From NCBI GenBank assembly GCA_017481875.1, contig JAFUOP010000041.1, positions 1-57,065 on the forward strand: a DNA stretch of 57,065 bases, in the 5' to 3' direction. Positions 3,577 through 32,043 of the stretch are shown piece after piece. Made by a program: the position numbers and the translations under genes. The stretch's first letter is position 1, and each line of letters opens with the position of its first letter. This DNA comes from Bacteroidaceae bacterium. GTDB taxonomy: Bacteria > Bacteroidota > Bacteroidia > Bacteroidales > Bacteroidaceae. The notes under the pieces were generated by a model that saw only the letters and a program-made list of their open reading frames with translations, ran no database searches and was not told the origin of the DNA.

Positions 3577-3578
3577 GA

Positions 3579-12600: not shown

Positions 12601-15600
12601 AAAAGTATAATAAAATCACCTTCAAAGCCCTGAAACCGCTTATACACTATGCCGAGCAGGGCGATTTGGCTGAATTCACCATAGGCGAGGGTTTTACAAG
12701 TTATCAGGTATCGGCCTTCACACGTCTCGATGACGTGGCCGTAACAGTAACACCTAAGCTCGACCCTCTGCCTGCCCGTGGCGACATTTACTTCAACAGC
12801 CCTGCAGCTCTCTTTGAGGTGGAGCTGAAGAACAACACCCCCAACAGCTACAATGTGTTGCCGAATATTATGTATCTTTTTGATGAGTTCGGTTCCTATT
12901 ATGCTTCGGTGTTCAAAGAAGAGCGTTACGACAAAGCAATCGCAATAGGTCCTAACGAGGTTAAAAAATTAACTTCCAATGAATTGAATGCCTTATGCGG
13001 CAACCCCGATACCATAAAATGTTTCGAAGCCCGCCTTGGTGGTGTTTTTGTTGAAACTCCTATCCCCGATATAAAAAAGGTGGTGAATTTGCAGTCGTTC
13101 AATCAAATTGAGGTTGTGGCTTATAGTGCCGATTCGCTAAAAAAAATTGCTCAAGGTGAGAAAAACCGCAAGGTGCGTGCAATGCTTGGTGGTGGAAAAT
13201 CCGACTTCAATGCCAAAGATATGCACTTTTCTGAGGTGGTGGTTACTGTAGCTCCCAAGGCCGATGCTACATTCAAGCCCGACCCCGATGAGTATTTCGA
13301 AAAACCGGGTAATCTTTTCGAAGTAACCCTGCTCAATGTAACAAGCAATGAGCAGAAGGTGGGCTTGCGTCTTACATACAACGACCGTTATTTCATAAGC
13401 AAGCCCGATAGTGTAATAACCGTAAAACCCGATGAAAAAATAAAACTCAGTGCCACACGCTTGAACGACCTGTGCGGGCACGATATGTACAGCTACGGTG
13501 CCCCCTTGTACGAGGCCGATACGCTTGGTGGTGTGCGTGCCGAAAAACCCGACCCTCTTGAAATAAAAATGAAAGAGGGCGATAACAAGATAACCGCCCT
13601 TGTGTGGCGCAAAATTATTGAGGACAAGGAGAAACCTACTGTATATAAAGTAGATAGTATCTCAAAATGCGACACTGTCTTCCAGCCTGCTTTGCGCGAT
13701 TTGTGGATAGGCGAGTACCGTCTCACAGTTACCGAGGCCAAGGAGGTAGCTATAAAAGATAAGGAACTTAAAGAGAAGGGTTACGACTGTTTCAAAGGTA
13801 AAGGACACGTTCACACTACAATGATGAATGTTCCTGTGCGAGTAGCTGTGGAGTTCGACAGTATATACGTAGATGCGTCGATAAAGCGAGTGGTGAAGAA
13901 CGGTGTTAAGTCTATTACGGAAAAGAGTGCCCACGTTCCGTTGGAAATCTTTGAAGAGAATTTTGTAAAGGAGCTTGCCAAAACCGATTCGGTAGGTGCC
14001 GAAGCCAAAGTGGAAAAACTACTTAAAGATGCGGGCGTTGGCGCATTCTATAACTACGTGATAGGCAATGCGATGCAAACTCTTGCCAAGGTCGATTCGG
14101 CAGCAGTCGTTACATTACCGATTGGTCTCACCGTGCCTATGGACAAAGAACTTGAGTGCCCTGCAACAATTCAGTTGGCACAAATGGAATTCTTGCCCGA
14201 AAGTGCCAACCTCGACCTTATTGGCGAGTTTGTGCTCCCCGAGTGCGAGGCTGTGGAGAGCGACATTCTCATATTTGCAGCCCGCAAGCTCACTACCTCG
14301 CCCGAAAGTTTCCTGCCACAAAGCGGTTCTTTGGGCCTTGTAAAGAGTTTTAAGGTAAAAGACCCCGATTCCGATTTTACATTCACGTTCAATGCCCCCT
14401 CTAATCAAGATTACAGCAAAGCTTCCGATGGCTGTTTTATCTCGTGGAAAGATGGCAAGTTTAACGAACTGTGCGCAAGCATAAGTATGAACCTGCCCAG
14501 CGACGAGCTTTTGAAAGATGACGGCAAGGCTGCGCTCGACCCCAATGTTCACCCCGAAATTACCCTCACAGCCTTTATTGCCGATGCCGAGGACTGGTTT
14601 GCGACGGTTAAAATGGACCCCTTCCAGGTGGCAAGTGCACCGGGCTTTACATTCAGTGCAACGGGTGATTCGGTGGGTATTGTGCTCGACCGTTCAAAGA
14701 GAAGAACCCCCTCGGGTATAAAATTCCCCACCAATTACAAATTCGATGGCAAGCTTGGCTTGTCGGGCGACCCCGGAAAGAACGAAAAAGCCTATAACGA
14801 GTGGAAAGGTTTCTACTTCGAGGAACTCAGCTGTAAGTTGCCACACTTTGTGGAGCTCGATTCCGTGGGCGATTCACGCGTGAAGGTTGGTGTGAAGAAC
14901 GTAATATACGATGCTTCGGGCTTCTCGATGGACGTTTCGGTGGACAGCCTCTTTACGTATGGCACGCCCAAAGTGGGTGGTTGGAAAATTACTCTCGACA
15001 ATATCTACTTGAACATAAAGCAGAATAGTTTTGGCAGTTCCGGCCTCAGTGGTAGAATAGAGGTTCCGTTCCTTTGCAAAAAGGACACCACCGAGAAAGC
15101 CCAGATAGGCTACACGGCTGCCATACAGTCTGTCGCACACGGTAAGAAAGATGGTCTTGCTGTGAATTTCCGTATGCAGCAGCTTGACGACGAGGTGGGG
15201 CTCGACTTTATGTTGGCCAAGGTGCAGTTCAACAAAGACAGCACATACTTCAATGTAGTCTATTGCGACACGCTGCCCAAAGGCAAGCAAACGCTTGTGG
15301 AGTTGTGTCTCGATGGTAAGGTGAGCATCACCTGTGCCGAAAAGATAGACTTCAAACTACCCGATATTCCGTTCAAGAATATGCGTATTGCCAACTTCGA
15401 CCAAAGTTTGCTCACCGGCAAGAAGAACGATAAGAAAGACGACAAGAAAAAGAGCAGCGGCCAGGGCGTGGAAAGCCCCGATGGAAATACAAATTTCCAC
15501 ACGGGTAAGTGGGCATTGGCCGGCGACCCGGGTAGCGACGAAGGTACTTACTGGGGAATGCCACTTGTGCTCGACAATATCTCTATGGAGGTGGGCGATG

Positions 15601-18600
15601 GTGGCGAAACCTTGGGCCTTGGCATAGAGGGTGGTGTCGTTGTTATGGGTAACAAGAAATTTGGTCTTGGTGCTACGGTGGGGCTCACAATATGGTCCGA
15701 AATCGATTGGGAAAAGACCACCATTAAGTACAAAGAGGTTGAGTTCAAGTCGATGCATGTCGAGGGCCAGTATGCCGGAATGGTCTCTGTGGTTGGCGAC
15801 CTCGAGGTTTCCGACGAGGAAGAAAAATCGGGTTTCGATGCCGACCTCGATGTCAAGGTCAAGGGCCTCTTCGAGATAGACCTCGCTGGTGGATACTACA
15901 AGATGAAAAAGACCGAGGAAGACCTCAAACTCGATGAAGGCGATGAGGCCGAAGACGAATATTACCGCGCGGGATATTTCCTTGCGAAGGCAGGCTTCGG
16001 CAGGGGATTGCCATTGGGCCCCGTGTCGCTGCAGAAGATTACGGGCGGTTTCTTCATAAACTACTCTGTTGCGGTGTCCGATGTCGATGGTGCCGACGAT
16101 ATGGTTGATGCGCTCGAAAAGAGCCTGAAACCCAAATATAAATCGTATGGCGGTATGTTTGGTGTGGGGCTTGCTGTGGGCGACGAAACGATTATAAACG
16201 GCGAGGCCACCCTGCTTGTTATGGTGGATATACAGGAAGATGGCATAAGGGTGCCCGGTGTGGTTATGCAGGGCGAGGTACACGCTCTTTGCGCATCGAC
16301 CGATGCCGATAGTGGCCTTGTTAATGGAAAGGTAACAATAATCTACGAAGATACCACAACACCCGACATTACCGAGGAGGAGAAGGCTGCGATGAGTAGC
16401 GGCGACCTCAGGGAGAAGTTGGAGGAGAAGAAAAATGAGCATAAGATGTTCAAGTTGTCGGTAACGGTGGATAGCGACATAGCCGCTATGTACAAGAAAT
16501 TCACGGGTGAGGAGTACCAGGTGAAGGCTCCAATATCCGACCTGCAGGCTCTGGACCAAAAGAATGCCGACAGCGAGAACAAGGGCGAGCAGAAGAACCA
16601 AAGCTCGGCTGCGGGCAAGCTCGAGAGCAAGGGCTATGTGAAGTCGGGCTGCGGAGCCACCATAAATCTTGAGTTCCAAATACGCAACTACCCGGCACAG
16701 AACAAGACATTCTGGCACCTCTATGTGGGCGAGCCCGACGAGGCCAAGCGTTGTCGCATCACGTTCATAGATTTCGAGGTGGGCAAGGATTCACCCGTGG
16801 GCTTGTGGGCCAAGGTTTATGCCAACGCATACCTGTGCCTGGGTAACGAGCTCCCGGGCAACGGTAAACTGCCTGATATCCCCGACAAGGTGCAGGAGGC
16901 ACTTGGTATGAAGGGTGCCGATGGCAAGGTTGATACCAGCCTCAAGAGCAAGCTCGATGCCGCGCGTGAACAGACAATGAAGGGCGGCCCTGCCGGCGAT
17001 ATAAACGGCGGTATAATGGTGGGTGGTGCTCTTGGTGCCGAAATTGGTTGCAACGCTGTATTCTGCTATGCCAACGTGGAGGGTATGCTTGGTTTCGACC
17101 TCATACTCAAGCAGTACAAAGAGGGTGTCAGATGTACCGACGGCTCGCGTGCAGGCGGCAAGAATGGTTTCTATGCAACAGGCCAGATATATGCAATGCT
17201 CAAGGGCGAGCTTGGCCTTATGCTCGACTTGTGGATATTTAAAGGCAAGGTGCCTTTGGTGGATATGACTATGGGCGCGCTGCTGCAAGGCGGTTTCCCC
17301 AACCCCACTTGGGTATATGGCCGTATGCGTGCCAAGGGTTCTGTGCTTGGCGGCCTCATCAAGTTCTCATCTACCATTGAGATGAAGGCCGGCAAGGTGT
17401 GTGTGCCCGAAATGGGCAACCCGCTCGACGACATAAAGATATTCGGCGATGTGCAGCCCGGCGACGAGGATATCGAAAAGGGCTGGAGCGACAAATCTTT
17501 GGTATCTTGTTACGGAAAATCTACCTTCACCACCAATATGAAGATAGACAAGGTGCTTGCGCTTGTAGATGAGGCTGCCACAATGGAGGAAAACGGTATG
17601 GACGGCGACGGTGGCAACGTAACACGTATGTATGTGTTCCACCTCGACAACAACTTCGAAATGAAGGAGTATGACGAGAGTGACCCCACCGACGACGAGC
17701 GTAGCGCATACACAACATATATTACACACAGCAACCCCACATTCGACAAGGAGAATTACGAGTTGCGAACAGGCTCCTTCAAGCCCAACACTCTCTATCG
17801 CGTGAAACTGCGCGGTACCTGTAAGGAGGTGGTTGATGGCCGCGAGGTCGATCCCATTTACAAGGATTCGCTCTCGGGCTACAAGGAGGAACACCGCCCG
17901 TTTGCCGACGTACGTTATGTCTATTTCCGCACAGGCAAGCTCAGCGACAACATCAACGACGAGGTAGTGGGTTATCTGCCCAATATCACACCCTTCACAC
18001 AGTCGCTCGACGATGTAACACAGCCCTCGTTTATGGAGGCACACGTGCGTGATGACTACTGGCACAACCCCGACTACGAATTTGTGGCAAGCATAAAGGA
18101 GTATGACCAGGCTACAGGCCGTTATATTCTGCCCGATGCCCGTGCCGGTTTGCGCAAAGGACAGGTATCAAAGTATGAGAATCTGTCCGTTATAGAGGTA
18201 GTGGAGCAGGGTGTTGACGAAGATGGTAATGAGTTCAAATATGCCACCGTTACAATAGACAAGCCCGTTCCCGGCGAGTTCTTTGTAAAGGGTAAGAGAT
18301 ACCGCTTTGAGGTTCAGCGCGTGAACCGTGCACAGCTCAATTCATATATGGATATGATTGAGGAAAACTACAAGAGCATTATGGCAATGACCAAAGAGGA
18401 TATCGACTCATACGAACAGCAACTTGCCGAAATGGACGAGGCCATTGCAGAAGGCGATGCTAAAGCCGGCGACGCTAACACCAACCAGGCAATACGCGAC
18501 CTCTACAACTACTACAAGGAGGTGGGCGAAATGTATGGCGAGAATGAGGCCGAGCAGCGCATAAAGGAGTACAAGGAGCAGTTGAAATCCAATGCACAGG

Positions 18601-21600
18601 GCTTTGCCGAGGTGGTATATACACAGGACTACAAATACAACGGCTACCGTAACTTCCAGGAGTTCGTGCAGAATGAGGAGTATCAGTGGTACACAACACC
18701 GCCGCTTGTCGACCAGTTCAGCGAGCCCAATTCAAAGAACACTTCGGTGCTCTATTGCAAGGTAGATGATGTGGTGCTCAGGGGAAGCGATTCAAGAAAC
18801 AACAACCCCTATTATGCACTCAACTACTGGCACTCGATAGCTGCCATTGCCTACGAGGCCACTCCCGCTTACGACTTCTGCAAGAGAACGTGGAGGCAGA
18901 GTAACTTCGACGGCTCAAGGGGTGTAACCTTTGTGCCCGAATACGATTGGTTGCGCAACGGTAATGCCAACGGTGCGTCAATGAGCTTCGAGGAGTATGA
19001 AAAACTCTTCAGCCCTGCCTACTGCAAACGCTGGTTCTCATACGACGAAGGCGAGAGCCGTGTTCCGGGTCCAAGCCGAGTAATTATGAATATATGGAGG
19101 GCTATGGAGTCCGATGCCAATGTTGCCGAGAATTTCGAAAAAGAGATAAAGGAAAAATATGAGTATTACGAGCACTTCAGGGACTTCAAGTTTACCGATG
19201 CTGCCGACAATGGTACAATGCTCAAGGGATATGTGAAACCATATAATCAGGGTGGAAGCTATTATCCCCAGTATGCAATGATGCCTGTATGGCAGATAGG
19301 TCTTATATACGCTGCCGACCACCCGGGCAAGTATGGCCTCAAACAAAGCAATTGCGGTCGTGCAGGAACAACAGCCTATAAGTATATGACTGGCGAGTAT
19401 TCGCTCTTCAAGGCAAGCTCGTTCCTCAACCGCATTCAGAGCATATCGGCCCGCGTGCGTTTCTGCGACGGCTACAACATTGCCACAGTGAGCGGCAAGG
19501 GCGGCAGCTACAATGCAAGCAACTACGGTATGCGCCCATTGACAAGTTCAAAGCGTACGGTGCTCATAAAATCCGATTTCAATGGCCGTGGTTATTACGA
19601 TTTAGGTCAGGATGTGGCTGTGTCGGCCGAGGAGTATGTACACATAGGTGACGAGGTGCTGCGTTACTATATCCTCAAGCACTACGATACCAACAAGGAC
19701 GGCCGTATGCACATCAACGAGATGAACGCTATAACCAACCTGAGCCTCGATTTCAGTGCCATCTATCTGCAGGATGGCCGCAAACGACGTGGGTATGAGG
19801 AATACAATAGCTACAAGTATATATATATAGAGTCGCTCGATGCATTGAAGAATATGCCTAATCTGGAAACCCTCACCTTGTCCGATAACAGTGGCAGCGC
19901 ACACAACACATTCAGGCAGAACAACAAGGCATTGACTTTTGAGGGCAATCCTAAACTTAAGAAGGTTACTATGAGGCGCTGGTACGTGGAGACACTCGAC
20001 TTCAAGTTCAACCCCAACCTCAAGACACTGCAAATAGATATGCGTGCGGGCGATAATACAACCGACGACGGCTATGCAGCCGTAGGTTGGAACTCGGTAA
20101 AGCACAAGGGTGTGAAAAACCTCTATTTGGCTTCAAACGATGCTCTGCGCACACTCAGCGTGATTGATTGCGACCTTGTCGAGCTCGACCTCAGCAACAA
20201 CCCCAATATCGAGAAGCTCGACCTGCGTTTGAACCATCTCGCATCATTGGATATAAGTGCAGCCAATAAATTGCGTGAGGAGTACATAAAGGTAGGTTAT
20301 CAGGTGCGCAGCGGTGCAAGCCAGGCTATGCGCAATGTTATTACCAGCAATGTAACTACGTTTAATATTAGTTCTGCTCTTGCAAGAATAAGCGATATGA
20401 GCTCTCCCAACTACTATGTGACATTTGAGACAAAGAGAAGTGAGGAGTATGTGTCAACCGACGACCTCGACAAGAACCTGAATGCCCACCTCACATCGCT
20501 TGCCGAAAAGGCACAGATGAACTTCTATGATTGGGCGGCAAAGCAGGTTGCTCTCGATGCCGAAGGCTTGGATATAAAATCAATCAAATATCTCGATTAT
20601 TTTATGCCGGCACTTACGTCTTTGAACGTGAACGACAATGCATTGAAGGAACTCGACTTGAGTGGCTTCCCCAAACTTAGAAAGGTTTATGCCAATAACA
20701 ACAATATACGCAGAATTGAGATAAACAGTAACAGCGATATCATTGAGTTGGAGGTGAGCAACAACGAACTGACGGAGTTGCCATTGGATATTATGCCCAA
20801 CCTGCTCTCTCTCAAGTGCGACAACAACAGCATAGAGATTCTCTATCCCAATGTTTGTCCCAAGCTCATCAAGTTGCATTGTGCGGGCAATGCTCTCACA
20901 GAACTTGTGATGGATAGGCTCACCTCTCTGCAAGAACTTGTGTGCAGCGACAATAACTTCACACAGGGCAATCTTATTATGCCTGCCAACCTCGGTCGCT
21001 TGCAGGTGTTCGAGGCCAAGAGGGCACTTGGCGATATTGCCGAGGTTGATTTGAAAGCGGCAACAAACATAAGGAGAATAGATGTGTCGAACAATGCATC
21101 GCTCAAGAGCCTGCTCATCTCGGAGAATGCGACCTCATTGCAATACCTCTATGCTGCCGATTGCGCTCTTAACTCAATAGGCCCCAAAGGCAGCCGATAT
21201 TTCTATTTCCGTTGCAGTGGAGAAGGGGAGTCGCACTACTTGAATCTGCGCAGTCTGGTTGAGGTGAACATTGCACGTAACCCCATTATAAGAGCGTATG
21301 TTGCCTACAACACCTCGTCGTTCCCCAACTTGCGCTCTATTGATGTGAGTGGTTGCGATGTGATAAATGTGAAACTGCTTGGCTCTTCAAACTGCAAACT
21401 CACAAGGCTTTGCGCGGGTGTTCCCCAGCGTACTGCCGGCAGCAAGGTGGTTGTGTGGGCTGTAAATGACCGCAACTGGTTCAGCAGATGGCCCGAGTGG
21501 AGCGAGTACCCCGAAAACAAACACACCACCCGTATGGTCTATGGCAGAAATAGCGATAACCTCGAAAAGTATGACGAGGAGGAGAACATAGATGTAGAGG

Positions 21601-24071
21601 TTATCACAACCAACGACAAGAAACTGCGTGCGGCAATGGGCGAAACCTTCTATAAATATATGAAGGATAATCTGCGCCCCGACAGCCTCGGTTATCGTGC
21701 CCTGCACACTGCCGATGTGAAGAACCTCACATCGCTCGAGTGTGCCAATATGGAGGTTGTAAGCCTCGGCGGTATGCTTGAATTTATGCCTAATGTCAAG
21801 GATATCGATGCCACGGGTAATGAGATGAAGGAGGTGAGCATTCCTCTCAATGGATTAAATAACCTTAACCTCTCGAATAACCCGTTGCTCGAGACTCTAC
21901 AGAATGATTATGGCGGTTGTGCAAAGAGAATAGATCTGTCGCACTCGTACATCGATGATGGCATACTGAACGCGGCACGTGGCGCGGCTGTAGGTGGCGA
22001 TTTGATTGTGAACGGCGATTTGGGCGCCGAGGAGCTGATAATTTTCACGGATGAAAAATCTTCTCCGGCCTCATTGACGATGCTCAGCACCAACCGTTCG
22101 CTCTACTTGCATAGCTGTTACATTCCCGAGATTAAGTTCAGCGGTAAGGCATTGACATTTGCATCAAGCGGCAAACGTACCTGCAAGATGGAGAAACTGC
22201 TGCTTATGAACGAGGAGAAGCCTGTTGAACTTGTCTTCCAAACCGTGGATATGCCGCTCTTGTGGATAAACAAGTGGATTGACGACAACCCCAACCGCAA
22301 GTTTACAATGAGAGTGCAGACAGGTAACGAGGAGGTGAATACCAAAATTAACGGTATGCTCTCGTTTATAAACTCCACCACTATGACAGGCTCGGTGGGC
22401 AAGTTGAGCAGCGAGATGAAGCAGATGGCAAACAACATTCTGCTGCCATATGCCTATTCGGGCGAGGTACCCAAGGGTGCACGTTTCGACGAGGTGCTCG
22501 ACGAGTTCGGCCTGCACGAGACACGCACCACCGATGACCTGAAAATGGGGCGTGCTATGGGCTACAGATTGTATGAGTCGCTCAAGAGTGAGTATGCCCC
22601 CGGCAAGGAGTATCTGCACGTGGAAGACGTGAAGAACGTAACCAAGTTCAGCTGCGCAGGTATGAACGTGCCCGATATATTGACAGTGCTAAGCTATATG
22701 CCGTCGGTGACAAATGTCAATGCATCGGAGAACAGCATAAGAAAGTTCATTGTACCTACAAGGGGTATATACGATTTGTCGAACGGTCAGGTTTCTCTCG
22801 AGAAACTGGAATTTGCACGCAAGGCAATAAGCCTCGACCTCACAAATACAGTCATCAACCGTGAGGTATTTGAAGAGGCAATAAAGAATGTGACCACCAA
22901 TCTCAAGGTAACTCACACCGGTGAGGTTCTTTCGATAAACGATTCTTCGAACAAGTTGGGTGAGCTAATGATTCTTGCGAGCCTCAATATATACAGTTGC
23001 AAGATACAGACATTGAACTACCGTGGCAAGTTCCTGAATCTGCGTGGCGATTTGGATAATATTTCAATATCTAATCTTCGTTTGAATACTGCCACAAACA
23101 CCAACATAAGCTTTACTTCGGCCGACGTGGCATTGAATTTCATTGCCAATTGGTCGCAGAACAACCCCGTGGATACTGAGTTCAATATTGTTCTGCTCGG
23201 CGGTAACGTATCGGCCTGCACCAGTGCACTTAAAGCCTTCAATAATGAGGCTGCGGCCGGTCGTGGCTTTACCGAGGCAAACAAGAAACTTGCCATCGAT
23301 GCCATAGTGGATTGTGCCAACAAGGGTTACGTCGCAAAGGGTGGCAAGTACGACAGTATGCTCGACGAACTTGGCCTTGCTCCCAAGGCAAAACCGTGGG
23401 CTGTGAAGCTGAACAATGCCGGTGCACATGTACTGAATGTTATCACGGCTATGCGCAGCCATTGTGGCTATGGCTTGCTCGAAGCAAAGAGGTACTGCGA
23501 CAATGCTCCCTCTGTTATTGGAACATTCGACACACAGGAGGAGGCTGCGGCACTTAAGCGCGACATTGAAAATGTTGGTGGCTCGGCTGTGGTGCTGCAC
23601 AATGGTGTGCAGGTGGCAGAGCCCGCCAAGAGGAAGGCTGAGGCTGCCGACTGCGACGTTGTTCTCACAAGCACGGGGGCAAACAAGATAAGTGTGATTA
23701 GGGCTTTGCAATCCGTTTTCGGTATCACTCTGGTACAAGCAAACACTCTTGTAAAGACGCTCCCCGTAGTCATTGCAACAGGCAAGACAAGGTCCGAGGC
23801 GCAGGCTATAAAGAGTGAGATAGAGGGTGCGGGCGGTAGTGTGAATATAAGTTCACAAAAGAGCGAATTCGATGTGGTGCTCACAAATGCGGGTGCCAAT
23901 AGGATTGCCGTGATAAAGGCCCTGAAGGCTGCCTGCGGCATTGGCACATTAGATGCCAACAACCTTACCAAGAACCTTCCTGCAGTTGTGGCAACGGGTG
24001 TGAGCAACAGCGAGGCCCAGGATATAAAGAGTGCCATTGAGGAGGCTGGCGGTAGCGTGCGCATCGAGTAA
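9681..24071 (+). CDS. Giant exported protein: Ig-like repeats, beta-rich core, EF-hand, LRRs, three L7/L12-CTD-like domains
   Basis: 4796 residues in one uninterrupted frame. A signal peptide covers about 1-27 (ending SSLCAQ). Seven tandem repeats of about 160-170 residues start near 28, 359, 519, 684, 850, 1020 and 1187; each opens with a VTVxPKxxPLP-like strand and a PxxLFEVxL segment. Residues about 1300-2600 are a beta-rich region of long amphipathic strands, split by a Lys/Asp linker near 1914. A helical insertion follows near 2885-2970. A canonical EF-hand loop (DTNKDGRMHINE, 3336-3347) precedes leucine-rich repeats from about 3390 to 4480. The C-terminus is three tandem domains (about 4573-4642, 4657-4724, 4729-4796) that closely resemble the ribosomal L7/L12 C-terminal domain, e.g. 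NAGANRIAVIKALKAACGIG. No T9SS tail is present. Exact function is unknown; an extracellular or surface location is inferred from the signal peptide and neighbours. Confidence 0.85.
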   Translation: MNTIMIKHRLFSYIVCMLLCASSLCAQVSVTVQRKQNPLPAQGGVYMSDPGRFFNIIVTNNSASEFLPVRLEARIEGPIENSVDIWPNSDSYLATMASRSMPVYIPLQPGQSRVLTQTDLFNMFRQYDAGTESFGSGYLYDAFQNGTNSGVFGLLPEGHYGLKITAKTNFTDFNDPGDYLGEGICFFDICYTANPPSFNNITYINGNNAGVSGFEENEGYYTAYFPTSNPRFSWTEPTFNYRGLTVTRQFIYDFVLYQLSEEQHPSDAVLHGGNIAYSQYGLMTPQCIVPYNIVAKLKRYKNVKYVVQVTARPLVNDASNPNYTQVGNDGKSELLVLLMDNSNAGEDFDIVVDNPQTELPINVTVEPKFTELPSALYPYFENPSELFNVTLENRSSETIPVCMLMQYYKGNWGVTAAPDRQHTNEYIELAPGARVALSAEDFDRLAGGYDTDRDVIAFKAKTGFVIGKPTSDYFPESNDTAFVRVCRYTGGKPVLRETIVGKGRVPFRTSENVMSGEMFSVTLEPKMSILPKDGAHYFTKPSRLFTLKIKSLSPKTLRIYPGLFYFVEDEVSYSGDYFKGKRFADNYITIKSGETKAFSDEEFDKFFGGFEEYRKQLKGGEKEVLTDFSLIELAESLENVAKLYIFDYERLSMLDLEKDKPSQALLMEYSASFTTSSSVKLGDVDVVIKPRVNPFPYNGDVYINSPGRLFEIELKNLTNKDLKLCPSITYADRDIDGALYSYIPSKWFTYPEFVLKAKEKMVLDRETLNKLCGDTIATRINHSTGEKESDFKDFDEIITLDDANHLKFTLINADSLRKIPADAPNKADRVLAASQALDFWADKNVSLTDLDVSIKLKMNPMPYNARAYFTKPEQLFEVSLSNTGDRTIEFVPMIMFEFNEDDRATYLSNSYKEKDMKHVLVKPGETLELTDEQVKMYFSSKGFTKVTSDLFGKITGKAEFSALDADREITIDPKKYNKITFKALKPLIHYAEQGDLAEFTIGEGFTSYQVSAFTRLDDVAVTVTPKLDPLPARGDIYFNSPAALFEVELKNNTPNSYNVLPNIMYLFDEFGSYYASVFKEERYDKAIAIGPNEVKKLTSNELNALCGNPDTIKCFEARLGGVFVETPIPDIKKVVNLQSFNQIEVVAYSADSLKKIAQGEKNRKVRAMLGGGKSDFNAKDMHFSEVVVTVAPKADATFKPDPDEYFEKPGNLFEVTLLNVTSNEQKVGLRLTYNDRYFISKPDSVITVKPDEKIKLSATRLNDLCGHDMYSYGAPLYEADTLGGVRAEKPDPLEIKMKEGDNKITALVWRKIIEDKEKPTVYKVDSISKCDTVFQPALRDLWIGEYRLTVTEAKEVAIKDKELKEKGYDCFKGKGHVHTTMMNVPVRVAVEFDSIYVDASIKRVVKNGVKSITEKSAHVPLEIFEENFVKELAKTDSVGAEAKVEKLLKDAGVGAFYNYVIGNAMQTLAKVDSAAVVTLPIGLTVPMDKELECPATIQLAQMEFLPESANLDLIGEFVLPECEAVESDILIFAARKLTTSPESFLPQSGSLGLVKSFKVKDPDSDFTFTFNAPSNQDYSKASDGCFISWKDGKFNELCASISMNLPSDELLKDDGKAALDPNVHPEITLTAFIADAEDWFATVKMDPFQVASAPGFTFSATGDSVGIVLDRSKRRTPSGIKFPTNYKFDGKLGLSGDPGKNEKAYNEWKGFYFEELSCKLPHFVELDSVGDSRVKVGVKNVIYDASGFSMDVSVDSLFTYGTPKVGGWKITLDNIYLNIKQNSFGSSGLSGRIEVPFLCKKDTTEKAQIGYTAAIQSVAHGKKDGLAVNFRMQQLDDEVGLDFMLAKVQFNKDSTYFNVVYCDTLPKGKQTLVELCLDGKVSITCAEKIDFKLPDIPFKNMRIANFDQSLLTGKKNDKKDDKKKSSGQGVESPDGNTNFHTGKWALAGDPGSDEGTYWGMPLVLDNISMEVGDGGETLGLGIEGGVVVMGNKKFGLGATVGLTIWSEIDWEKTTIKYKEVEFKSMHVEGQYAGMVSVVGDLEVSDEEEKSGFDADLDVKVKGLFEIDLAGGYYKMKKTEEDLKLDEGDEAEDEYYRAGYFLAKAGFGRGLPLGPVSLQKITGGFFINYSVAVSDVDGADDMVDALEKSLKPKYKSYGGMFGVGLAVGDETIINGEATLLVMVDIQEDGIRVPGVVMQGEVHALCASTDADSGLVNGKVTIIYEDTTTPDITEEEKAAMSSGDLREKLEEKKNEHKMFKLSVTVDSDIAAMYKKFTGEEYQVKAPISDLQALDQKNADSENKGEQKNQSSAAGKLESKGYVKSGCGATINLEFQIRNYPAQNKTFWHLYVGEPDEAKRCRITFIDFEVGKDSPVGLWAKVYANAYLCLGNELPGNGKLPDIPDKVQEALGMKGADGKVDTSLKSKLDAAREQTMKGGPAGDINGGIMVGGALGAEIGCNAVFCYANVEGMLGFDLILKQYKEGVRCTDGSRAGGKNGFYATGQIYAMLKGELGLMLDLWIFKGKVPLVDMTMGALLQGGFPNPTWVYGRMRAKGSVLGGLIKFSSTIEMKAGKVCVPEMGNPLDDIKIFGDVQPGDEDIEKGWSDKSLVSCYGKSTFTTNMKIDKVLALVDEAATMEENGMDGDGGNVTRMYVFHLDNNFEMKEYDESDPTDDERSAYTTYITHSNPTFDKENYELRTGSFKPNTLYRVKLRGTCKEVVDGREVDPIYKDSLSGYKEEHRPFADVRYVYFRTGKLSDNINDEVVGYLPNITPFTQSLDDVTQPSFMEAHVRDDYWHNPDYEFVASIKEYDQATGRYILPDARAGLRKGQVSKYENLSVIEVVEQGVDEDGNEFKYATVTIDKPVPGEFFVKGKRYRFEVQRVNRAQLNSYMDMIEENYKSIMAMTKEDIDSYEQQLAEMDEAIAEGDAKAGDANTNQAIRDLYNYYKEVGEMYGENEAEQRIKEYKEQLKSNAQGFAEVVYTQDYKYNGYRNFQEFVQNEEYQWYTTPPLVDQFSEPNSKNTSVLYCKVDDVVLRGSDSRNNNPYYALNYWHSIAAIAYEATPAYDFCKRTWRQSNFDGSRGVTFVPEYDWLRNGNANGASMSFEEYEKLFSPAYCKRWFSYDEGESRVPGPSRVIMNIWRAMESDANVAENFEKEIKEKYEYYEHFRDFKFTDAADNGTMLKGYVKPYNQGGSYYPQYAMMPVWQIGLIYAADHPGKYGLKQSNCGRAGTTAYKYMTGEYSLFKASSFLNRIQSISARVRFCDGYNIATVSGKGGSYNASNYGMRPLTSSKRTVLIKSDFNGRGYYDLGQDVAVSAEEYVHIGDEVLRYYILKHYDTNKDGRMHINEMNAITNLSLDFSAIYLQDGRKRRGYEEYNSYKYIYIESLDALKNMPNLETLTLSDNSGSAHNTFRQNNKALTFEGNPKLKKVTMRRWYVETLDFKFNPNLKTLQIDMRAGDNTTDDGYAAVGWNSVKHKGVKNLYLASNDALRTLSVIDCDLVELDLSNNPNIEKLDLRLNHLASLDISAANKLREEYIKVGYQVRSGASQAMRNVITSNVTTFNISSALARISDMSSPNYYVTFETKRSEEYVSTDDLDKNLNAHLTSLAEKAQMNFYDWAAKQVALDAEGLDIKSIKYLDYFMPALTSLNVNDNALKELDLSGFPKLRKVYANNNNIRRIEINSNSDIIELEVSNNELTELPLDIMPNLLSLKCDNNSIEILYPNVCPKLIKLHCAGNALTELVMDRLTSLQELVCSDNNFTQGNLIMPANLGRLQVFEAKRALGDIAEVDLKAATNIRRIDVSNNASLKSLLISENATSLQYLYAADCALNSIGPKGSRYFYFRCSGEGESHYLNLRSLVEVNIARNPIIRAYVAYNTSSFPNLRSIDVSGCDVINVKLLGSSNCKLTRLCAGVPQRTAGSKVVVWAVNDRNWFSRWPEWSEYPENKHTTRMVYGRNSDNLEKYDEEENIDVEVITTNDKKLRAAMGETFYKYMKDNLRPDSLGYRALHTADVKNLTSLECANMEVVSLGGMLEFMPNVKDIDATGNEMKEVSIPLNGLNNLNLSNNPLLETLQNDYGGCAKRIDLSHSYIDDGILNAARGAAVGGDLIVNGDLGAEELIIFTDEKSSPASLTMLSTNRSLYLHSCYIPEIKFSGKALTFASSGKRTCKMEKLLLMNEEKPVELVFQTVDMPLLWINKWIDDNPNRKFTMRVQTGNEEVNTKINGMLSFINSTTMTGSVGKLSSEMKQMANNILLPYAYSGEVPKGARFDEVLDEFGLHETRTTDDLKMGRAMGYRLYESLKSEYAPGKEYLHVEDVKNVTKFSCAGMNVPDILTVLSYMPSVTNVNASENSIRKFIVPTRGIYDLSNGQVSLEKLEFARKAISLDLTNTVINREVFEEAIKNVTTNLKVTHTGEVLSINDSSNKLGELMILASLNIYSCKIQTLNYRGKFLNLRGDLDNISISNLRLNTATNTNISFTSADVALNFIANWSQNNPVDTEFNIVLLGGNVSACTSALKAFNNEAAAGRGFTEANKKLAIDAIVDCANKGYVAKGGKYDSMLDELGLAPKAKPWAVKLNNAGAHVLNVITAMRSHCGYGLLEAKRYCDNAPSVIGTFDTQEEAAALKRDIENVGGSAVVLHNGVQVAEPAKRKAEAADCDVVLTSTGANKISVIRALQSVFGITLVQANTLVKTLPVVIATGKTRSEAQAIKSEIEGAGGSVNISSQKSEFDVVLTNAGANRIAVIKALKAACGIGTLDANNLTKNLPAVVATGVSNSEAQDIKSAIEEAGGSVRIE

Positions 24072-24108: not shown

Positions 24109-26412
24109 ATGAAAAGATATATAAGAATGAGAGGATTGGTGATTACAGCAGCGTTGCTTGTGGCTGCGGTGGCGCAGGCTGTGGGTGTTGGTGATGCAGT
24201 ACCGGCAACAAGGAATATAGCACGCAAGGTGATTGCTGTGCCGGCCGATACCATAGACACAAAGGTGGTGGACGTGAACAAGATGAGCCAGAAGGAGTAT
24301 GAAGAGTACTTGCTCACGCAGCCCATAGATACAACCCGTAGCGATACCACCACGGTGGCATTCTCGGTGCAGGTGCTTGCCCGCCCCAAAGGCGACAGGG
24401 TACTGTTGCGTTGGGCCCCCGATGAGTTCGCGCCATGGTATCTTGCCAACAGATATGGATACAATATATTGCGTACAGACAAAAACGGCGCAGTGGATAC
24501 CCTTAAAAAGTCGCTCAAACCATATACATTGGAGGAGATGAAGGCACGCTTCGAGGCCAACGACTCGCTCGCAGGTACAGCTGCACAAATGCTCTACGGC
24601 AAGGGCACCGAGCTCAACAGTGCCATAGGCAGCGATGGTGCCGAGGGTATTATGCAGGTATATGAAGAACAGCAGACACGTTTTGCCTATGCTATGTTGC
24701 TTTCTGAAATACGCCCCGACCTTGCCAGGGCAATGGCACTTATGTACATAGACAGCACTGCTGTGAAGAATGCAGAATATTCATATACCGTAACCACCAA
24801 TATTCCCAAAGAGCAGTTGAATATGGTATATCAGCCGGCTTTTGTGAAGAATGTAAATGAGAAGCCTGTCAAGTTCGAGCCCGTGATAACCGATTCTACC
24901 GGTGTCGATGGCCATTCTATTCGCCTTTTCTGGCCTATGTCCCACGCTTTCAGTACCTATGATATTGAACGCCGTGACGAGAATGGCGAGTGGATAAAGC
25001 TCAATGCACACCGCTTTATGACACTTATGACGCAAGAAGACGAAACCACAGCGCAGAACATATTCGAAGATGTGAACCTGGAACCAGGCTTCTATGATTA
25101 CCGCATTTGTGGCTACGATGCTTTTGGTGAAAAGAGTAACTATAGCAATGTGCACAGGGCGCAGCTGGTCGATATTATTCCGCCTACAGCACCTGTTATA
25201 TCTCAGTTTAATGTGGAGCGTCCTACAGAGAATACAATAATGGCCGAAATTATATGGGAAAAGAATATAATGGAGCCCGATTTTATGGGTTACAATATCT
25301 ACTACTACAATGCTCAGGTGGATACTGTGTGGGTGAAACTCAATGAACAATTGCTCGACCCCGAGATGCAGTCGTTCCGTTGCGAGGTTACTTTCCTTGG
25401 AACAGGACACGTTACGGTTGTTGCTGTGGATACATTAAACAATTCATCGGCAGCAATGCCGCAAGAGCTCTTTATTGCCGATTTTACTCCCCCAACGGCA
25501 CCCACAGGCTTGCAGTATGTGATGTCGCCCACCGGCAGCGTAATGATAAAGTGGAACAAGAACCCTGAACCCGATGTGGCCGGTTACAACCTCTATTATG
25601 CCAACGACAGCACACACACCTTCCTGCAGAAGAGGGGCAAGATGAGCCGTGGGCCTGTGGTGTTTGATACTTTGGCTGTTACAGGTGTTACGCAACGGCA
25701 CACATATTACCGTGTTAAAGCTTTTGATTTCTCGGGTAATGAATCTGCATTCTCAGAGATACTCACCGTAAAGCGTAAGAACTACGATGCACCGCGCCCG
25801 TGTCGCATAGATTCCGTTTGGCAGGATACAAAACGTGTTTATATGAGATGGTTTCCTTCGTCCGAAGATGACGTTGAAAAATTCTATGTATATCGTCGTC
25901 TGCACGGTGAAGAGATAAATTCGCTCATAGGTGTGCTCACCAGGGATTCTGTGAAGAATGGGCGTTTGTTTGTTGTCGATTCTCCCGAGCCCAACAGCAA
26001 GGCACGCTATTACTATCACATAGAAACTATGAACGAGAGTGGTGTAACATCGGAACCATCTTATGAAACTTCGTTCCTCTTCAAGGGGGAAACAATGCTG
26101 CCGCTTGTTTTGAGAATGGGTGCTACATACAGGCACGACGATGAACAGGTGCATATAGCGTGGGATATATCCGGCATAACGCGTGAAATGCAAGACAAAG
26201 GACTTTATATATGTTTGTACAAACGCTGGAATAACGATGATATATTCCGTTATGTAAAGTCTGTTAATATCAATGAAATAAGTACTATCGATAGTCATGT
26301 GGAGCCTGGTGAGGTGGTTGATTATCGCATAAGGGTGCGTAGCCGTGAGGGGCATTTGTCGCCCTATTCAAATGTGGTGCAGGTAACTGTGCCAAGCAAT
26401 AGTGAAGAATAA
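24109..26412 (+). CDS. Secreted fibronectin type III repeat protein
   Basis: 767 residues with a signal peptide (ending VAQAVG). At least four fibronectin-III-like modules lie from about residue 255 to 750: RLFWPMSHAFSTYDIERRD, then two modules opening with PPTAP and carrying GYNIYY and GYNLYY strands, then a module with FYVYRRL, and a partial last one. The first 250 residues include a repeat-poor region rich in Thr and Asp (IDTTRSDTTT). It starts 37 bases after the giant gene and ends directly against the next frame, so it is in the same operon. Such modules usually act as spacers or binding arms. No enzyme motif is seen. Confidence 0.75.
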   Translation: MKRYIRMRGLVITAALLVAAVAQAVGVGDAVPATRNIARKVIAVPADTIDTKVVDVNKMSQKEYEEYLLTQPIDTTRSDTTTVAFSVQVLARPKGDRVLLRWAPDEFAPWYLANRYGYNILRTDKNGAVDTLKKSLKPYTLEEMKARFEANDSLAGTAAQMLYGKGTELNSAIGSDGAEGIMQVYEEQQTRFAYAMLLSEIRPDLARAMALMYIDSTAVKNAEYSYTVTTNIPKEQLNMVYQPAFVKNVNEKPVKFEPVITDSTGVDGHSIRLFWPMSHAFSTYDIERRDENGEWIKLNAHRFMTLMTQEDETTAQNIFEDVNLEPGFYDYRICGYDAFGEKSNYSNVHRAQLVDIIPPTAPVISQFNVERPTENTIMAEIIWEKNIMEPDFMGYNIYYYNAQVDTVWVKLNEQLLDPEMQSFRCEVTFLGTGHVTVVAVDTLNNSSAAMPQELFIADFTPPTAPTGLQYVMSPTGSVMIKWNKNPEPDVAGYNLYYANDSTHTFLQKRGKMSRGPVVFDTLAVTGVTQRHTYYRVKAFDFSGNESAFSEILTVKRKNYDAPRPCRIDSVWQDTKRVYMRWFPSSEDDVEKFYVYRRLHGEEINSLIGVLTRDSVKNGRLFVVDSPEPNSKARYYYHIETMNESGVTSEPSYETSFLFKGETMLPLVLRMGATYRHDDEQVHIAWDISGITREMQDKGLYICLYKRWNNDDIFRYVKSVNINEISTIDSHVEPGEVVDYRIRVRSREGHLSPYSNVVQVTVPSNSEE

Positions 26413-26463
26413 ATGAGTGATTTATCCAAATTGATACGTCGTTTCAATATAATAAACTTAAAG

Positions 26464-27177
26464 ATGAAGCAGATAGGTAACATATTCCTGCTGTTTGTAG
26501 TGGCAATGTTCTGCTCGTGTGGAGAGTTTTTTAACTTTGAGGTGGAACAGCCAACAGTCAATGGGCTTAGAATTTCGCATCACGAAATAGATCTTATAGT
26601 GGGCGATTCTATAACTTTCAGTGTGGAACTTTCGCCCGATACCATACCGGTCTCTTATCTCTGGTTGGTAGAAGGCGATGACGATGCTATAGAACTTGCC
26701 GGTCGCAAGGTGAATGCCTTGAAACCTGGTAAAGCTTTAGTGAGAGTCGAGGCAGAACGTGTAAATAATACTAACGAGGTAGATGTTATTTACGATAGTT
26801 GCTATGTAAATGTGTTCGATTGGAAAGCAGTTGATTACAACGAATATCTTTACGAAACAGTGCTCTATTCCTCATTGGTGATTGATGGGGTACAAAAGAC
26901 CAATGCTATGGGCAACACACGCCTGGTTGCAGTGGTCGATGGCGAGCTACGTGGCTTGGCGGTAATGCGCGAGGCTCACGGTATTCCTTATCTTGAAATG
27001 CGTATAAGAGCAAATTGGCCGGGTGAGATGGCGTACATTGAATGTTATAACCCCGACACATATCAGCGTTTTGTCTTCGATTCATTGCAATTGAATGGTG
27101 AGACATACGGTACATTGTCCGACCTCAAACGCTATCGAGGTAAAAGCAGGAATTATGGAATTGTGGAAAATGATTAA
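26464..27177 (+). CDS. Lipoprotein with Ig-like domain and AVVDGELRG module
   Basis: About 237 residues from the ATG at 26464, which gives a proper lipoprotein signal (FLLFVVAMFCSCGE). An upstream in-frame ATG at 26413 abuts the previous stop codon but adds 17 residues that spoil the signal. Residues about 30-115 look like a bacterial Ig-like domain (ISHHEIDLIVGDSITFSVEL). Residues about 130-230 carry the module RLVAVVDGELRGLAVMRE, also seen at both ends of the 1299-residue protein. The shared module suggests that the two proteins are functionally linked. It is predicted to be membrane-anchored. Confidence 0.7.
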   Translation: MKQIGNIFLLFVVAMFCSCGEFFNFEVEQPTVNGLRISHHEIDLIVGDSITFSVELSPDTIPVSYLWLVEGDDDAIELAGRKVNALKPGKALVRVEAERVNNTNEVDVIYDSCYVNVFDWKAVDYNEYLYETVLYSSLVIDGVQKTNAMGNTRLVAVVDGELRGLAVMREAHGIPYLEMRIRANWPGEMAYIECYNPDTYQRFVFDSLQLNGETYGTLSDLKRYRGKSRNYGIVEND

Positions 27178-27189: not shown

Positions 27190-27696
27190 ATGAAAAGGTG
27201 TGTTTTCATTTTGTTTGCAATGATGCTTGCCATAGTGGCTGTGGCCGATGGTGGGCTGAAGCAATATAGCAAGGTTGTGCTTGCTTTAGTCGATGGTCGT
27301 GTATTCGACATTGATATTGACGCGGACTCTTACATATATTCATATACCAAAGGCGAAGATGCCGAGGCTGTCCAGTATGTAGAGGTTAGTGGTACAAGAG
27401 AGATGTATCTATTTAACCGAGACGAATTACTCTCTATAAAATTTGTCGATGATGTAGCAACTTCCATTGAATATGTTGCTATAACCGATGAAAACAATCC
27501 TATGCGCTATGTTAATGGTGAGTTGCTGTTTCACCACAGCTTGAACGGTGAGAGCATCAGGGTGTTCGATGTTGCGGGAAAAAAGGTTCTCGACAGCGTG
27601 GTTCTCCCGGGCAGAAAAATTTCTTTGGATAAACTTGTGCAGGGAACATACCTTGTGGAGGTTAAGGGTTTCAAAACTAAAGTGATGGTACGATGA
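27190..27696 (+). CDS. Small secreted protein with T9SS type A sorting-like tail
   Basis: 168 residues with a signal peptide (residues 1-19). The middle 80 residues have no recognised domain (LVDGRVFDIDIDADSY). The last 55 or so read as a sorting tail: GESIRVFDVAGKKVL, then SLDKLVQGTYLVEVKG and KTKVMVR. It lies 12 bases after the lipoprotein gene, and its stop overlaps the ATG of the next gene by 4 bases (ATGA), so the two are likely translationally coupled. Confidence 0.7.
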   Translation: MKRCVFILFAMMLAIVAVADGGLKQYSKVVLALVDGRVFDIDIDADSYIYSYTKGEDAEAVQYVEVSGTREMYLFNRDELLSIKFVDDVATSIEYVAITDENNPMRYVNGELLFHHSLNGESIRVFDVAGKKVLDSVVLPGRKISLDKLVQGTYLVEVKGFKTKVMVR

Positions 27697-30600
27697 AAAG
27701 ATTTTTAGGTAAAATGTTTTTTATCTCATTGGCCATCATATTGGCTACAATGAGTGCAACGGCACAGGTCGATTTGCAAAAATCTTTTGGAGCAATGTGC
27801 AAGGACGGCAACGATTTTATGTTTGCCGAGGGTGGCAACTGGAAAATTTCCTTCTCTACTGCCGATTCATTGGGAAATGAGTACAACAAACCTGTGCAAA
27901 TGGTGTTCAACGGTGCTTTGTTCAAGGAGAATGTAGCATATTATTTAGAGGAAGTCGATAGTTTGCTTTTCAAGCTGCCCGAAACAGAGTATGCTGCAGG
28001 TGTTTTTGAAATTGGCGAGGAGTTGTTCAATTACATAGTTGAAAGCGATTCTTTGCACACAATATATTTCAGAATAGATTGCCTTACAAAAACCAAGCTA
28101 CCCAAGATAGGTCAGAAGGTGATTTGTAACATCTATCGTGGCAAATTGCCTTATGGTTTTATGGGCCGTGTTGAAAACATGCGTGCCGACTATTCTAAAG
28201 GTTTGGTGGAGATGCGCTGTGGCACCCTCCCTCTCGAGGATATTTTCGATGTGCTGTACACCGGTGGTGTTACAGGTGTGCAGGGCACAGATGAGGTACC
28301 CGATTCAATGATACAGAAAAAGGAGGTGCGCAAGCGCATTATAACACGTGCTCAAGGTGAGGTTATAGACACTGTGGTTTCGTGGGGAGACAGCAAAGAA
28401 CTCGACAAGAAGATTGTGATAACCGAAAAGGGCGAGATTAAGGAGGACGAAGAAGAGGGCCCTTTAGTAATCAGCCTCGAGGGTGAGGCAGCTTTGGCAG
28501 CACACTTTTCGGCTATCATCGACAAGGCGCAGAGCATAAAGAAGATAAGGTGCACGGTAGATGCTTCGATAACCGGTAAGGTGAGCGTGGACGCCGATGT
28601 GGAAATCTCGCCCGACGAGAATGACAAAACCTCGCTCGATTTTGCTTCGGTAAAGGTGCCCATTGTGGTGTTGCCCGGTGTAACGGTGAATGTGGATTTC
28701 GGTCTTACGTGGGATTATAAACTCGAGGCACAGCTGCACGCCGAAGCAGAGTTTGGTATTTCACGCACGGCTGGTATAGATATCGACGGCCTTAACAGAG
28801 AGGTTGTTTGGGTTGATAATAACGAAAACAACAATAACAACCCGCTCAATTTCAGCAGCGGTGCATCGGGTGAGGTAAGTCTGAGCGGTGAGTTCTTTGT
28901 GGCCCTGCACACCAAGGTGGGCGTGGGCATAGCCGGCGAGGGTGTCAGTTTTATGTTGAAGTTTGGAACCGGCCCTAAAGTCAGCGGCCAGCTCACCTAC
29001 AAATTCGGGCAGAGGGATTACGACCTGTACGACGTGCCCGAGTGGCTTGCCGAGCGCGAGGAACTGTACAAGGGACTCAACGAGGGCACCTTCTTCTTAG
29101 TGGAGTGGGGTTTGTTGTTCGATGTGGAGTTTTCGGTGGGCTACGATGCCTGGAGCTTTTCTGCCAGCGAGTGGATGGAAAAGGTGGGCTTGGAAAATAC
29201 CCTGTTCTTTGAAATTTATCGCTTGAACGCAGCGCCAAGTACCGAAACCATTGACGACAGAAAACTGGCCGAGGGCTACTACAGTGGCACGTTGAAGAAC
29301 GAGTATGGTCTCATATTCCCATACGACCTCAATATGCTCTTCCTCGATATATCGCCGGGCGTGGAGCCCGACGGGCAGTTCGAGTATCTGCACGAGGGTG
29401 CGGGCAGGTTCAATGCCATTCGCAAGAAAGATGTCTCTTTCAATTTCGACATAAGCAACGAGCCTCTGCTCAAAGGTCGCAAGATAGGTGTATATCCCGT
29501 GCTTTTCAACTCCTTCTTCACCGGCAATCTGGTGATGGGGCAGTTCGACGAGTTCTACCAGCCATATAAAGTGAAGTTCACCGGGTATGAAAAGGATTAC
29601 GAGCGTGCCGACATTGTGGCAGAATTCGATGCCGATGCAGTGAGCAACCCCTATATTACTGAGGGCGGTATCATTTTTGTGGATGTTGAGACAGGCGACG
29701 TGCTAAAGACCGATAAAATTTTCGAGAACCGCAGGCCCGACAGCAATGTGATGCAGACATCGGCCACACGCGGTGTTTTCCCACGTGACGAGTTCAACGT
29801 CAAAGCCTATATATACGACAGTGTGAACGATGTATATATGTACAGCAATTCGTGGCCGGGTGGTTTCTTCGAGTACTATGCCCCCACAACAAAAGATGCT
29901 ACCGAGATTACCGCTGTGGGTGCCACGCTCAATGCCGATCTCCACAGCAGCATCTACGATGCCGAGGATATGAACCACGTAGATAACAGGTTCAGTGTTG
30001 GTTTCACCTATTCGCCCAAGGGAACAACGGTTATGGACTACCTGAACAACGTGCGTCTTGTTGGCTATGAACTGAGCCTCGACGGCAAGCTGCAGCCCGA
30101 TACCGAGTATTTCTTCAACGCTGTGGTTAATGACCACGAAACGGGCAAAACCTATAAGGGATTGCAGACAAGCTTCAGAACAAAACCGGTGTTCTATGGC
30201 GTTGAGGGTGATGCGAGCCATACAAGTGTTATCTTCTTTGCCAAGCTCGATAAGGGTTTTGGCAACATTTCGGACAAGGGAAAATATAAATTCCTTGTGT
30301 CGGAGAACAGGCTGCTCATAGATGCCGGTGAGGTTATAGAGGTGGAGCCCGAGGATATTACTCGTGATAGCGATGAGGACGACTATGACATCACGGTGGA
30401 GGAGGACAACCGCTGGGAACGCGAGAAAGTCTATTATGTGAAGGTGGTTTACGACGACGGCAATGGCACAAAATACGAATCGAGTGTAGAGGAGTTCCGC
30501 CTGCCGCCACCTATAGATAATCTTGAAGCGAAGCCTGCTTCGGAATCGGCTTTGCTGTCGGCCGATGTGCTCAAGGATTATGCCAACGGTGATGCCAAGA

Positions 30601-31659: not shown

Positions 31660-32043
31660 ATGAAAAGAGTAATTAAAAACATACTATTAATAATGCTGGC
31701 GACAATTATGTCGCCGGCATTTACCTCGTGTGAACTCGATGGCCCGGTGGCGCACTATCAAATTGTTGTAAATGACAGGCTTACATATTTACCACAGGAG
31801 AGTCTGTTGGAACTGGAGACACTAAACAAGGAACTTGCAACCACACCCTGCGAGAAAGACGATGCCATTAAACGTTTCAATGCATTCTGCAACAACCTGC
31901 AGGCCTACTACGACGAAAACCGTGGCAAGCTCATCTGGGACAATCTTAAATTTGAAATATGCCTCTATAATACCACCAGCGACAAAGGGGTGGGCGATGG
32001 TGAGCTGGTAACCAGTCGCATAATAACATATTTTTGCGGGTAG
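31660..32043 (+). CDS. Small lipoprotein, last gene of the giant-protein operon
   Basis: 127 residues with a lipoprotein signal (lipobox FTSC, Cys at about 24). The mature part has no domain I can name: VNDRLTYLPQESLLELETL, then AYYDENRGKLIW and a Cys near each end (PCEKD, FCNN). A frameshifted near-copy lies at 39170-39555. It is 7 bases after the 1319-residue gene and followed by an AT-rich gap, so it probably closes the operon. Function unknown. Confidence 0.7.
   Translation: MKRVIKNILLIMLATIMSPAFTSCELDGPVAHYQIVVNDRLTYLPQESLLELETLNKELATTPCEKDDAIKRFNAFCNNLQAYYDENRGKLIWDNLKFEICLYNTTSDKGVGDGELVTSRIITYFCG

What the first reader, a model, noticed from the sequence alone, without database searches (positions are those of the whole stretch)
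23397..24068. Three tandem ribosomal L7/L12 C-terminal-like domains end a giant exported protein
The last 225 residues of the 4796-residue protein fall into three repeats (about 4573-4642, 4657-4724, 4729-4796). Each carries the L7/L12 CTD pattern: a VVL strand, then AGAN(K/R)xxVIxAL, a GxG turn, and a closing SEAQxIKxxIEeAGGSV helix-strand. In E. coli L12 this domain contacts the GTPase factors through residues around K65, I69, K70 and K84. Repeats 2 and 3 keep the I69/K70-like pair as Ile-Arg and Ile-Lys, repeat 1 keeps the K84-like Lys, and no repeat keeps everything. L12 CTD is otherwise a ribosomal-stalk domain; finding it in triplicate on a signal-peptide protein suggests that the fold was recruited for extracellular binding, perhaps of surface-exposed elongation factors or another ligand.
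Basis: partly seen in the sequence, partly recalled or inferred. Interest (0 to 1): 0.85.

Follow-up and report, generated by a model that had tools for sequence, protein, structure and literature searches.

The report
Ribosome-stalk domains tip giant exported protein
A very large exported protein of an uncultured gut bacterium ends in three copies of a domain borrowed from the ribosome's own stalk protein, altered so that it probably no longer binds translation factors and most likely serves as a binding tip.

Summary
The 4796-residue ORF 9681-24071 ends in three PF00542 (ribosomal L7/L12 C-terminal) domains, each above Pfam's cut-off (44.9, 60.2, 68.2 bits), each matching solved L12 structures. 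Of 44 genomes held for the genus, 14 (G000 included) carry the giant. In the 13 whose C-terminus is in hand (3 on a separate contig), the chain ends in 1-5 such domains, 39 in all. Cys76 ties them to bL12 of this family: 31/39 tails, 44/44 sampled family rplL, 0/13 sampled others. They are under purifying selection, but 0/39 keep the four lysines of the translation-factor face, against 55/57 rplL. So recruitment of the fold is supported; EF-Tu/EF-G binding is not favoured. The giant is a divergent TANFOR-type protein in a conserved operon with T9SS-tail proteins; its first 3000 residues are conserved, its LRR and L12 end varies. Exported proteins of other architecture in sister genera also carry L12 domains. 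Best reading: a bL12-derived, adhesin-like binding tip. Ligand, surface location and structure are untested; structure prediction was off.

The parts
9681..24071 (+). giant exported protein, 4796 aa
   Evidence: orthologues
9681..9758 (+). probable signal peptide (MNTIMIKHRLFSYIVCMLLCASSLCA)
   Evidence: by eye; no predictor run
9753..10700 (+). TANFOR-type N-terminal region; a similar pattern recurs six times between residues 34 and about 1215
   Evidence: hhalign against two TIGR02542-matching proteins: prob 96.5, E 7.7e-10; direct TIGR02542 search of G000: no match at E<=1; pattern matches
14091..18350 (+). conserved core (residues 1471-2890)
   Evidence: found in 16/44 genus and 31/295 order genomes, each count including G000 itself
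19581..23375 (+). faster-evolving leucine-rich-repeat region (about residues 3301-4565)
   Evidence: LRR_4 E 7e-12; internalin-J-like stretch at residues 3589-3830; identity profile; limits are mine
23400..23585 (+). L12 C-terminal-like domain 1
   Evidence: PF00542 44.9 bits
23655..23849 (+). L12 C-terminal-like domain 2
   Evidence: PF00542 60.2 bits
23868..24065 (+). L12 C-terminal-like domain 3, ending one residue before the protein's last
   Evidence: PF00542 68.2 bits
3648..7547 (+). operon partner: Big_2 protein with a probable T9SS sorting tail
   Evidence: Big_2; TIGR04183 24.2 bits with its neighbours in the frame, but 15.4 bits against cut-off 23
7809..9659 (+). operon partner: probable outer-membrane beta-barrel
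   Evidence: by eye; no family match; homologue beside giants
24109..26412 (+). operon partner: fn3-like exported protein, next gene after the giant
   Evidence: fn3 E 4e-4, below cut-off; homologue follows the giant in 13 of 13
26413..27177 (+). operon partner: probable lipoprotein
   Evidence: by eye; conserved neighbour
27190..27696 (+). operon partner: small protein with T9SS sorting tail
   Evidence: TIGR04183 24.5 bits, cut-off 23
27693..31652 (+). operon partner: large exported protein with Ig/fn3-like domains
   Evidence: PhoD_N and Pur_ac_phosph_N
31660..32043 (+). probable small lipoprotein at the operon's end
   Evidence: by eye

Best explanation
The finding is the C-terminal end of a TANFOR-type giant exported protein, encoded in a conserved operon with an apparent outer-membrane barrel, an fn3-like protein, lipoproteins and proteins with T9SS tails. 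In one lineage of Bacteroidaceae (relatives mostly from ruminant hindgut) the chain was extended by leucine-rich repeats and then by a tandem array of domains derived from the C-terminal domain of the family's own bL12. The array lost the lysine face that captures translational GTPases but kept the sequence family and, by homology, the fold. It most likely works as a multivalent protein-binding tip, adhesin-like, next to the leucine-rich repeats. Shown: domain identity, position, purifying selection, loss of the factor lysines, variable copy number. Supported but not proven: descent from family bL12. Inferred: surface exposure, binding role, ligand.
For: PF00542 hits. Arrays of 1, 3, 4 or 5 domains at the C-terminus of 13/13 giants readable there. 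Cys76 in 31/39 tails, 44/44 sampled Bacteroidaceae rplL and 0/13 sampled others. Tree: tails cluster with 2 changes against a shuffled mean of 29 (68 columns). Four factor lysines in 0/39 tails against 55/57 rplL. dN/dS 0.12-0.39 in the L12 part and 0.14-0.26 in the LRR part, against 0.04-0.07 in the core (8 pairs). Residues 1-3000 conserved, 3000-4796 variable. Repeat turnover: G030 and G035 repeat 3 are 99% alike and intermediate between two repeat types. Exported L12 domains with Cleaved_Adhesin, fn3 and Cthe_2159 in sister genera. T9SS: SprA 2681 bits and sorting tails in the operon.
Against: No ligand, localisation or structure was tested. The giant lacks a T9SS sorting tail, so it may stay periplasmic. 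Faster evolution could also come from relaxed constraint. The tree does not place the tails inside Bacteroidaceae rplL, shows them as one clade in only 1% of bootstrap trees, and puts the three single-domain tails beside another fusion; 8 of 39 tails (G028, G001, G013, G015) lack Cys76. Two of seven exported L12 domains of sister genera keep the looser five-residue factor site.
Confidence: 0.5

Rival explanations
1. The L12 array is a docking, folding or export module that binds another product of the same operon (the barrel or the fn3 protein), standing in for a T9SS sorting tail.
For: Extreme C-terminal position in 13/13; no T9SS tail in the giant; barrel and fn3 genes flank it.
Against: Eight distinct L12-less loci have homologues of both barrel and fn3 beside the core gene (L044, L045, L047, L050, L078, L079, L080, L083), so the array is not needed for that pairing; nine L12-less relatives or TANFOR proteins examined also lack a sorting tail; copy number varies from 1 to 5.
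Confidence: 0.25
2. The array is mainly a spacer or cap at the end of the leucine-rich repeats, without a specific ligand.
For: Tandem repeats of variable number; higher dN/dS than the core.
Against: Still under purifying selection; repeat classes keep class-specific residues, e.g. N84 in 13/16 middle and 9/10 last repeats but K84 in 9/10 first repeats.
Confidence: 0.13
3. One reading: the domains bind surface-exposed elongation factors.
For: Same sequence family; 11/39 tail domains keep K65 and K70.
Against: 0/39 keep K65, K70, K81 and K84 together; K65R and K70R already weaken EF-Tu binding of Salmonella bL12 (PMC10602876).
Confidence: 0.06
4. The giant is a polymorphic toxin of the TANFOR class and the L12 array is its effector, acting as a decoy of the ribosomal stalk in a target cell.
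For: [quoted passage not shown] N-terminal relationship.
Against: The factor lysines are not kept; the next gene is a conserved fn3-like protein also present beside L12-less relatives, not an immunity-like gene.
Confidence: 0.05

Closest known systems
Ribosomal protein bL12 (L7/L12) C-terminal domain, PF00542
   Same: Sequence family and, by homology, fold; Cys76 of Bacteroidaceae bL12 in 31 of 39 tail domains
   Different: Exported, in tandem, no L12 N-terminal domain, factor-binding lysines not kept together
TANFOR-containing large proteins of Bacteroidetes (TIGR02542; Jana et al. 2020, PMC7073777)
   Same: N-terminal region by profile comparison, T9SS-tail and fn3 neighbours, variable C-terminus; one core homologue (G554, L084) matches TIGR02542 in the same ORF
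   Different: TIGR02542 itself gives no match for G000; C-terminus is LRR plus L12, not a recognised toxin; no immunity-like gene next to it
Exported L12-containing proteins with Cleaved_Adhesin or Cthe_2159 domains in sister genera (L118-L122)
   Same: Apparent signal peptide plus one or two L12 C-terminal domains
   Different: Other architecture; L12 domains not at the C-terminus; no Cys76 (0 of 8 domains, one of which, L124, is a 104-aa frame and not evidently exported)

Membership tests
PF00542 L12 C-terminal domain | Profile score above Pfam's gathering cut-off | tested here: met
   44.9, 60.2 and 68.2 bits against 25.9
PF00542 L12 C-terminal domain | L12 CTD three-dimensional fold | not testable with these tools
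   Structure prediction switched off; sequence hits to solved L12 only
Functional bL12 stalk domain | Conserved factor-face lysines K65, K70, K81, K84 | tested here: not met
   0/39 tail domains, 55/57 rplL
Functional bL12 stalk protein | N-terminal dimerisation domain and short ribosomal ORF | tested here: not met
   Domains end a 4796-aa chain; best TIGR00855 stretch covers positions 54-124 of 125
TANFOR polymorphic toxins | TIGR02542 N-terminal domain | tested here: inconclusive
   No direct match in G000 at E<=1; hhalign 96.5% to two proteins that match it at 62 and 51 bits, themselves below its cut-off of 67
TANFOR polymorphic toxins | C-terminal toxin domain with adjacent immunity gene | tested here: not met
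   C-terminus is LRR and L12; next gene is a conserved fn3-like protein
TANFOR polymorphic toxins | T9SS genome and T9SS-tail neighbours | tested here: met
   SprA 2681 bits; TIGR04183 in two operon proteins, one of the two below the cut-off
T9SS cargo | C-terminal sorting domain on the giant | tested here: not met
   No TIGR04183 in the giant
Adhesin | Surface exposure and ligand binding | not testable with these tools
   Inferred only

The most novel reading that the evidence does not exclude
In Bacteroidaceae the ribosomal stalk domain of bL12 has become an extracellular binding scaffold, recruited more than once into exported proteins; in this genus it forms a tandem array at the tip of a giant protein whose repeats duplicate, recombine and diverge much like Ig or fn3 modules, with a new face in place of the translation-factor site.
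Probability: 0.4. Interest if true: 0.78.

Novelty: new variant of a known kind. Interest (0 to 1): 0.62.

Why it matters
It would show a core ribosomal domain turned into a secreted, tandemly repeated binding module, linked to the lineage's own bL12 by a shared cysteine. It gives a concrete variable C-terminus for TANFOR-type giants, whose function is largely open, and warns that PF00542 or TIGR00855 hits in Bacteroidaceae need not be ribosomal proteins.

Tried and rejected
Another family for the tail: no other Pfam family at E<=0.001 in that region, and only weak sub-threshold NCBIfam and PDB hits (L23, glucose dehydrogenase) beside L12. TIGR02542 directly on G000: no match. Gene exchange of the C-terminal half: dS is lower there in some pairs (G000/G031: 0.92 and 0.37 in the N-terminal parts, 0.17 and 0.18 in LRR and L12) but not in others (G001/G013: LRR 0.17, L12 1.26; G014/G031 even), so it stays a suggestion; where repeat numbers differ between the two proteins or from G000, the L12 codon alignment itself is uncertain. 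Missing rplL in G000 as a biological loss: not claimed, since G000 is 75.8% complete and 13 of 44 genus genomes have no PF00542 match at all. Literature: the rows listed by 7 answered searches held no paper on exported L12 arrays by title or abstract start; the lists are capped and the library lacks most subscription journals, so this is not proof of absence.

Rows left out: the partial L12 of L034 (G016, below Pfam's cut-off) was not scored by the in-house profile and is not in the domain counts; the 9 'other fusions' include one truncated domain (L039). In one search identical rows were merged and strongly gapped rows left out (89 rows kept). The 29 family rplL and 13 other-family rplL are the best-scoring loci returned, not a random sample. 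Of 12 genomes with two or more matches besides G000, 11 were followed (G384, two short rplL-like frames, was left). In one search all 10 such genomes of other genera were followed, plus 2 weak singles; the protein of G833 did not match the in-house profile and is not counted.


Full report
Observation. ORF 9681-24071 encodes 4796 residues. Its last 225 residues hold three PF00542 domains with 44.9, 60.2 and 68.2 bits against a cut-off of 25.9 (whole protein E 3.9e-44). A profile made only from 57 rplL sequences gives the tail 162 bits, while the best of 1000 shuffles reaches 10. Each repeat has solved L7/L12 structures as best PDB hits.

Distribution. Of 44 genomes held for the genus, 16 have the giant's core (counting G000): 14 close (72-98% identity to G000, and G000 itself) and 2 distant (31-35%). 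Of the 14 close ones, 13 have a readable C-terminus, and all 13 end in L12 domains: three in G000, G010, G014, G019 and G031; four in G004, G005, G030 and G035; five in G028; one in G001, G013 and G015; 39 in all. In G010, G015 and G030 the end lies on another contig than the core. G061 is cut off at a contig end. The two distant homologues (G024, G012, 2474 aa) end without L12. In the order, 31 of 295 genomes (G000 among them) have a match to the core; the eight distant core loci L044-L051 hold no L12 domain in the DNA fetched. A scan of named genome records returned 20 loci, all MAGs titled Bacteroidaceae, Bacteroidales or Prevotella; 14 of the 20 titles name ruminant cecum, colon or rectum. 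The window's own record was not named.

Descent. At E. coli position 76 all 15 genus and 29 sampled family rplL have Cys, 0 of 13 sampled rplL of other families do, and 31 of 39 tail domains do; the 8 without are those of G028, G001, G013, G015 and one type of middle repeat. In a tree of 89 rows and 68 columns the tails need 2 changes, against a shuffled mean of 29, and first, middle and last repeats of the G000-like and G004-like species group by position. The tree has few columns, shows the tails as one clade in only 1% of bootstrap trees, sets the three single-domain tails beside another fusion, and does not by itself place the tails inside Bacteroidaceae rplL. Cys76 is thus the main evidence for descent from the family's own bL12, and the array predates the split of at least those two species groups.

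Loss of the stalk site. In Salmonella bL12, K65, K70, K81 and K84 are described as highly conserved in bacteria, and K65Q/R and K70Q/R reduce EF-Tu binding (PMC10602876, passages read). All four are kept in 13/15 genus, 29/29 family and 13/13 other rplL but 0/39 tail domains. With the looser five-residue rule (K/R65, I/V69, K70, K/R73, K84; the choice of I69 and R73 rests on recall) the counts are 55/57 rplL, 1/39 tails (G028, third repeat) and 5/9 other fusions of this genus and more distant Bacteroidota, and 2 of 7 exported L12 domains in sister genera (L120 and L122). N84 replaces K84 in 22/39 tails: 13/16 middle, 9/10 last, while 9/10 first repeats keep K84. So the change is patterned.

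Selection. For eight pairs, dN/dS is 0.04-0.07 in the core, 0.14-0.26 in the LRR part and 0.12-0.39 in the L12 part. Against G000, in windows of 150 residues, residues 1-3000 keep 56-100% identity except for one stretch (901-1050) where the three most distant orthologues fall to 38-41%; residues 3000-4796 fall to 21-60% in all but the two closest orthologues, apart from one stretch (4201-4350) of 73-81% in four of them. G030 and G035 share a repeat 3 that is 99% identical between them and intermediate (74-80%) between two repeat types.

The giant and its operon. Profile comparison relates its N-terminus to two proteins that match TIGR02542 (TANFOR): prob 96.5, E 7.7e-10 over 258 columns, with the L12 alignment as unrelated control at 0.1%. 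One of the two, from G554, also carries a core match in the same ORF. TIGR02542 itself does not match G000. Jana et al. 2020 (PMC7073777; abstract, introduction, results up to the BaCT immunity section, and section 9 read) describe TANFOR proteins as polymorphic toxins, hypothesise that they are T9SS substrates, and report fn3 and T9SS-tail neighbours. Here an fn3-like gene follows the giant in 13 of 13, and the barrel-like gene precedes it in 12 of 12 genomes where the DNA in hand reaches that far. Eight distinct L12-less loci show homologues of both; others show one or neither within the DNA fetched. Two operon proteins show T9SS sorting-tail matches (one of them below the cut-off), and the genome has SprA. 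The giant has no sorting tail and no immunity-like gene beside it.

Other exported L12 proteins. Among 251 family genomes, follow-up of 12 and reading of the loci show five proteins in four genomes of four sister genera with an apparent signal peptide and one or two PF00542 domains: three with Cleaved_Adhesin (one of them also fn3), one with Cthe_2159, one with no other family. None of their domains has Cys76, so they may be separate recruitments. Further fusions look intracellular: TIR + L12 + SEC-C (L028) and Sel1 + L12 (L029).

Conclusion. Recruitment of the L12 sequence family is secure. That the array is a binding tip is the best reading (0.5). Docking to operon partners (0.25), a spacer (0.13), elongation-factor binding (0.06) and a stalk decoy (0.05) remain. 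Signal peptides, barrel and lipoproteins were judged by eye.

Noticed in passing
G000 whole genome; genus genomes: No rplL-type PF00542 match in G000, and 13 of 44 genus assemblies have no PF00542 match at all; in G024, G014 and G061 rplL lies within a few hundred bases of a contig end, so the region may assemble badly.
   Followed up: no
L029 (G013): Three adjacent genes with zinc-ribbon-like starts (by eye) each hold one L12 domain; the 1009-aa one has 14 Sel1 stretches and its L12 domain groups with that species' own rplL in the tree, a separate recruitment.
   Followed up: partly
L028:2897-3976 (-): TIR domain + L12 C-terminal domain + SEC-C motif in one 360-aa protein.
   Followed up: partly
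L041, L043 (unnamed Bacteroidota): Large proteins that resemble Tc-toxin-type components by eye carry L12-like domains; not pursued.
   Followed up: no
window 9681-24071: An EF-hand-like loop (DTNKDGRMHINE) stands before the leucine-rich repeats, and a helical module seems to recur before the last LRR block and before the L12 array (by eye).
   Followed up: no
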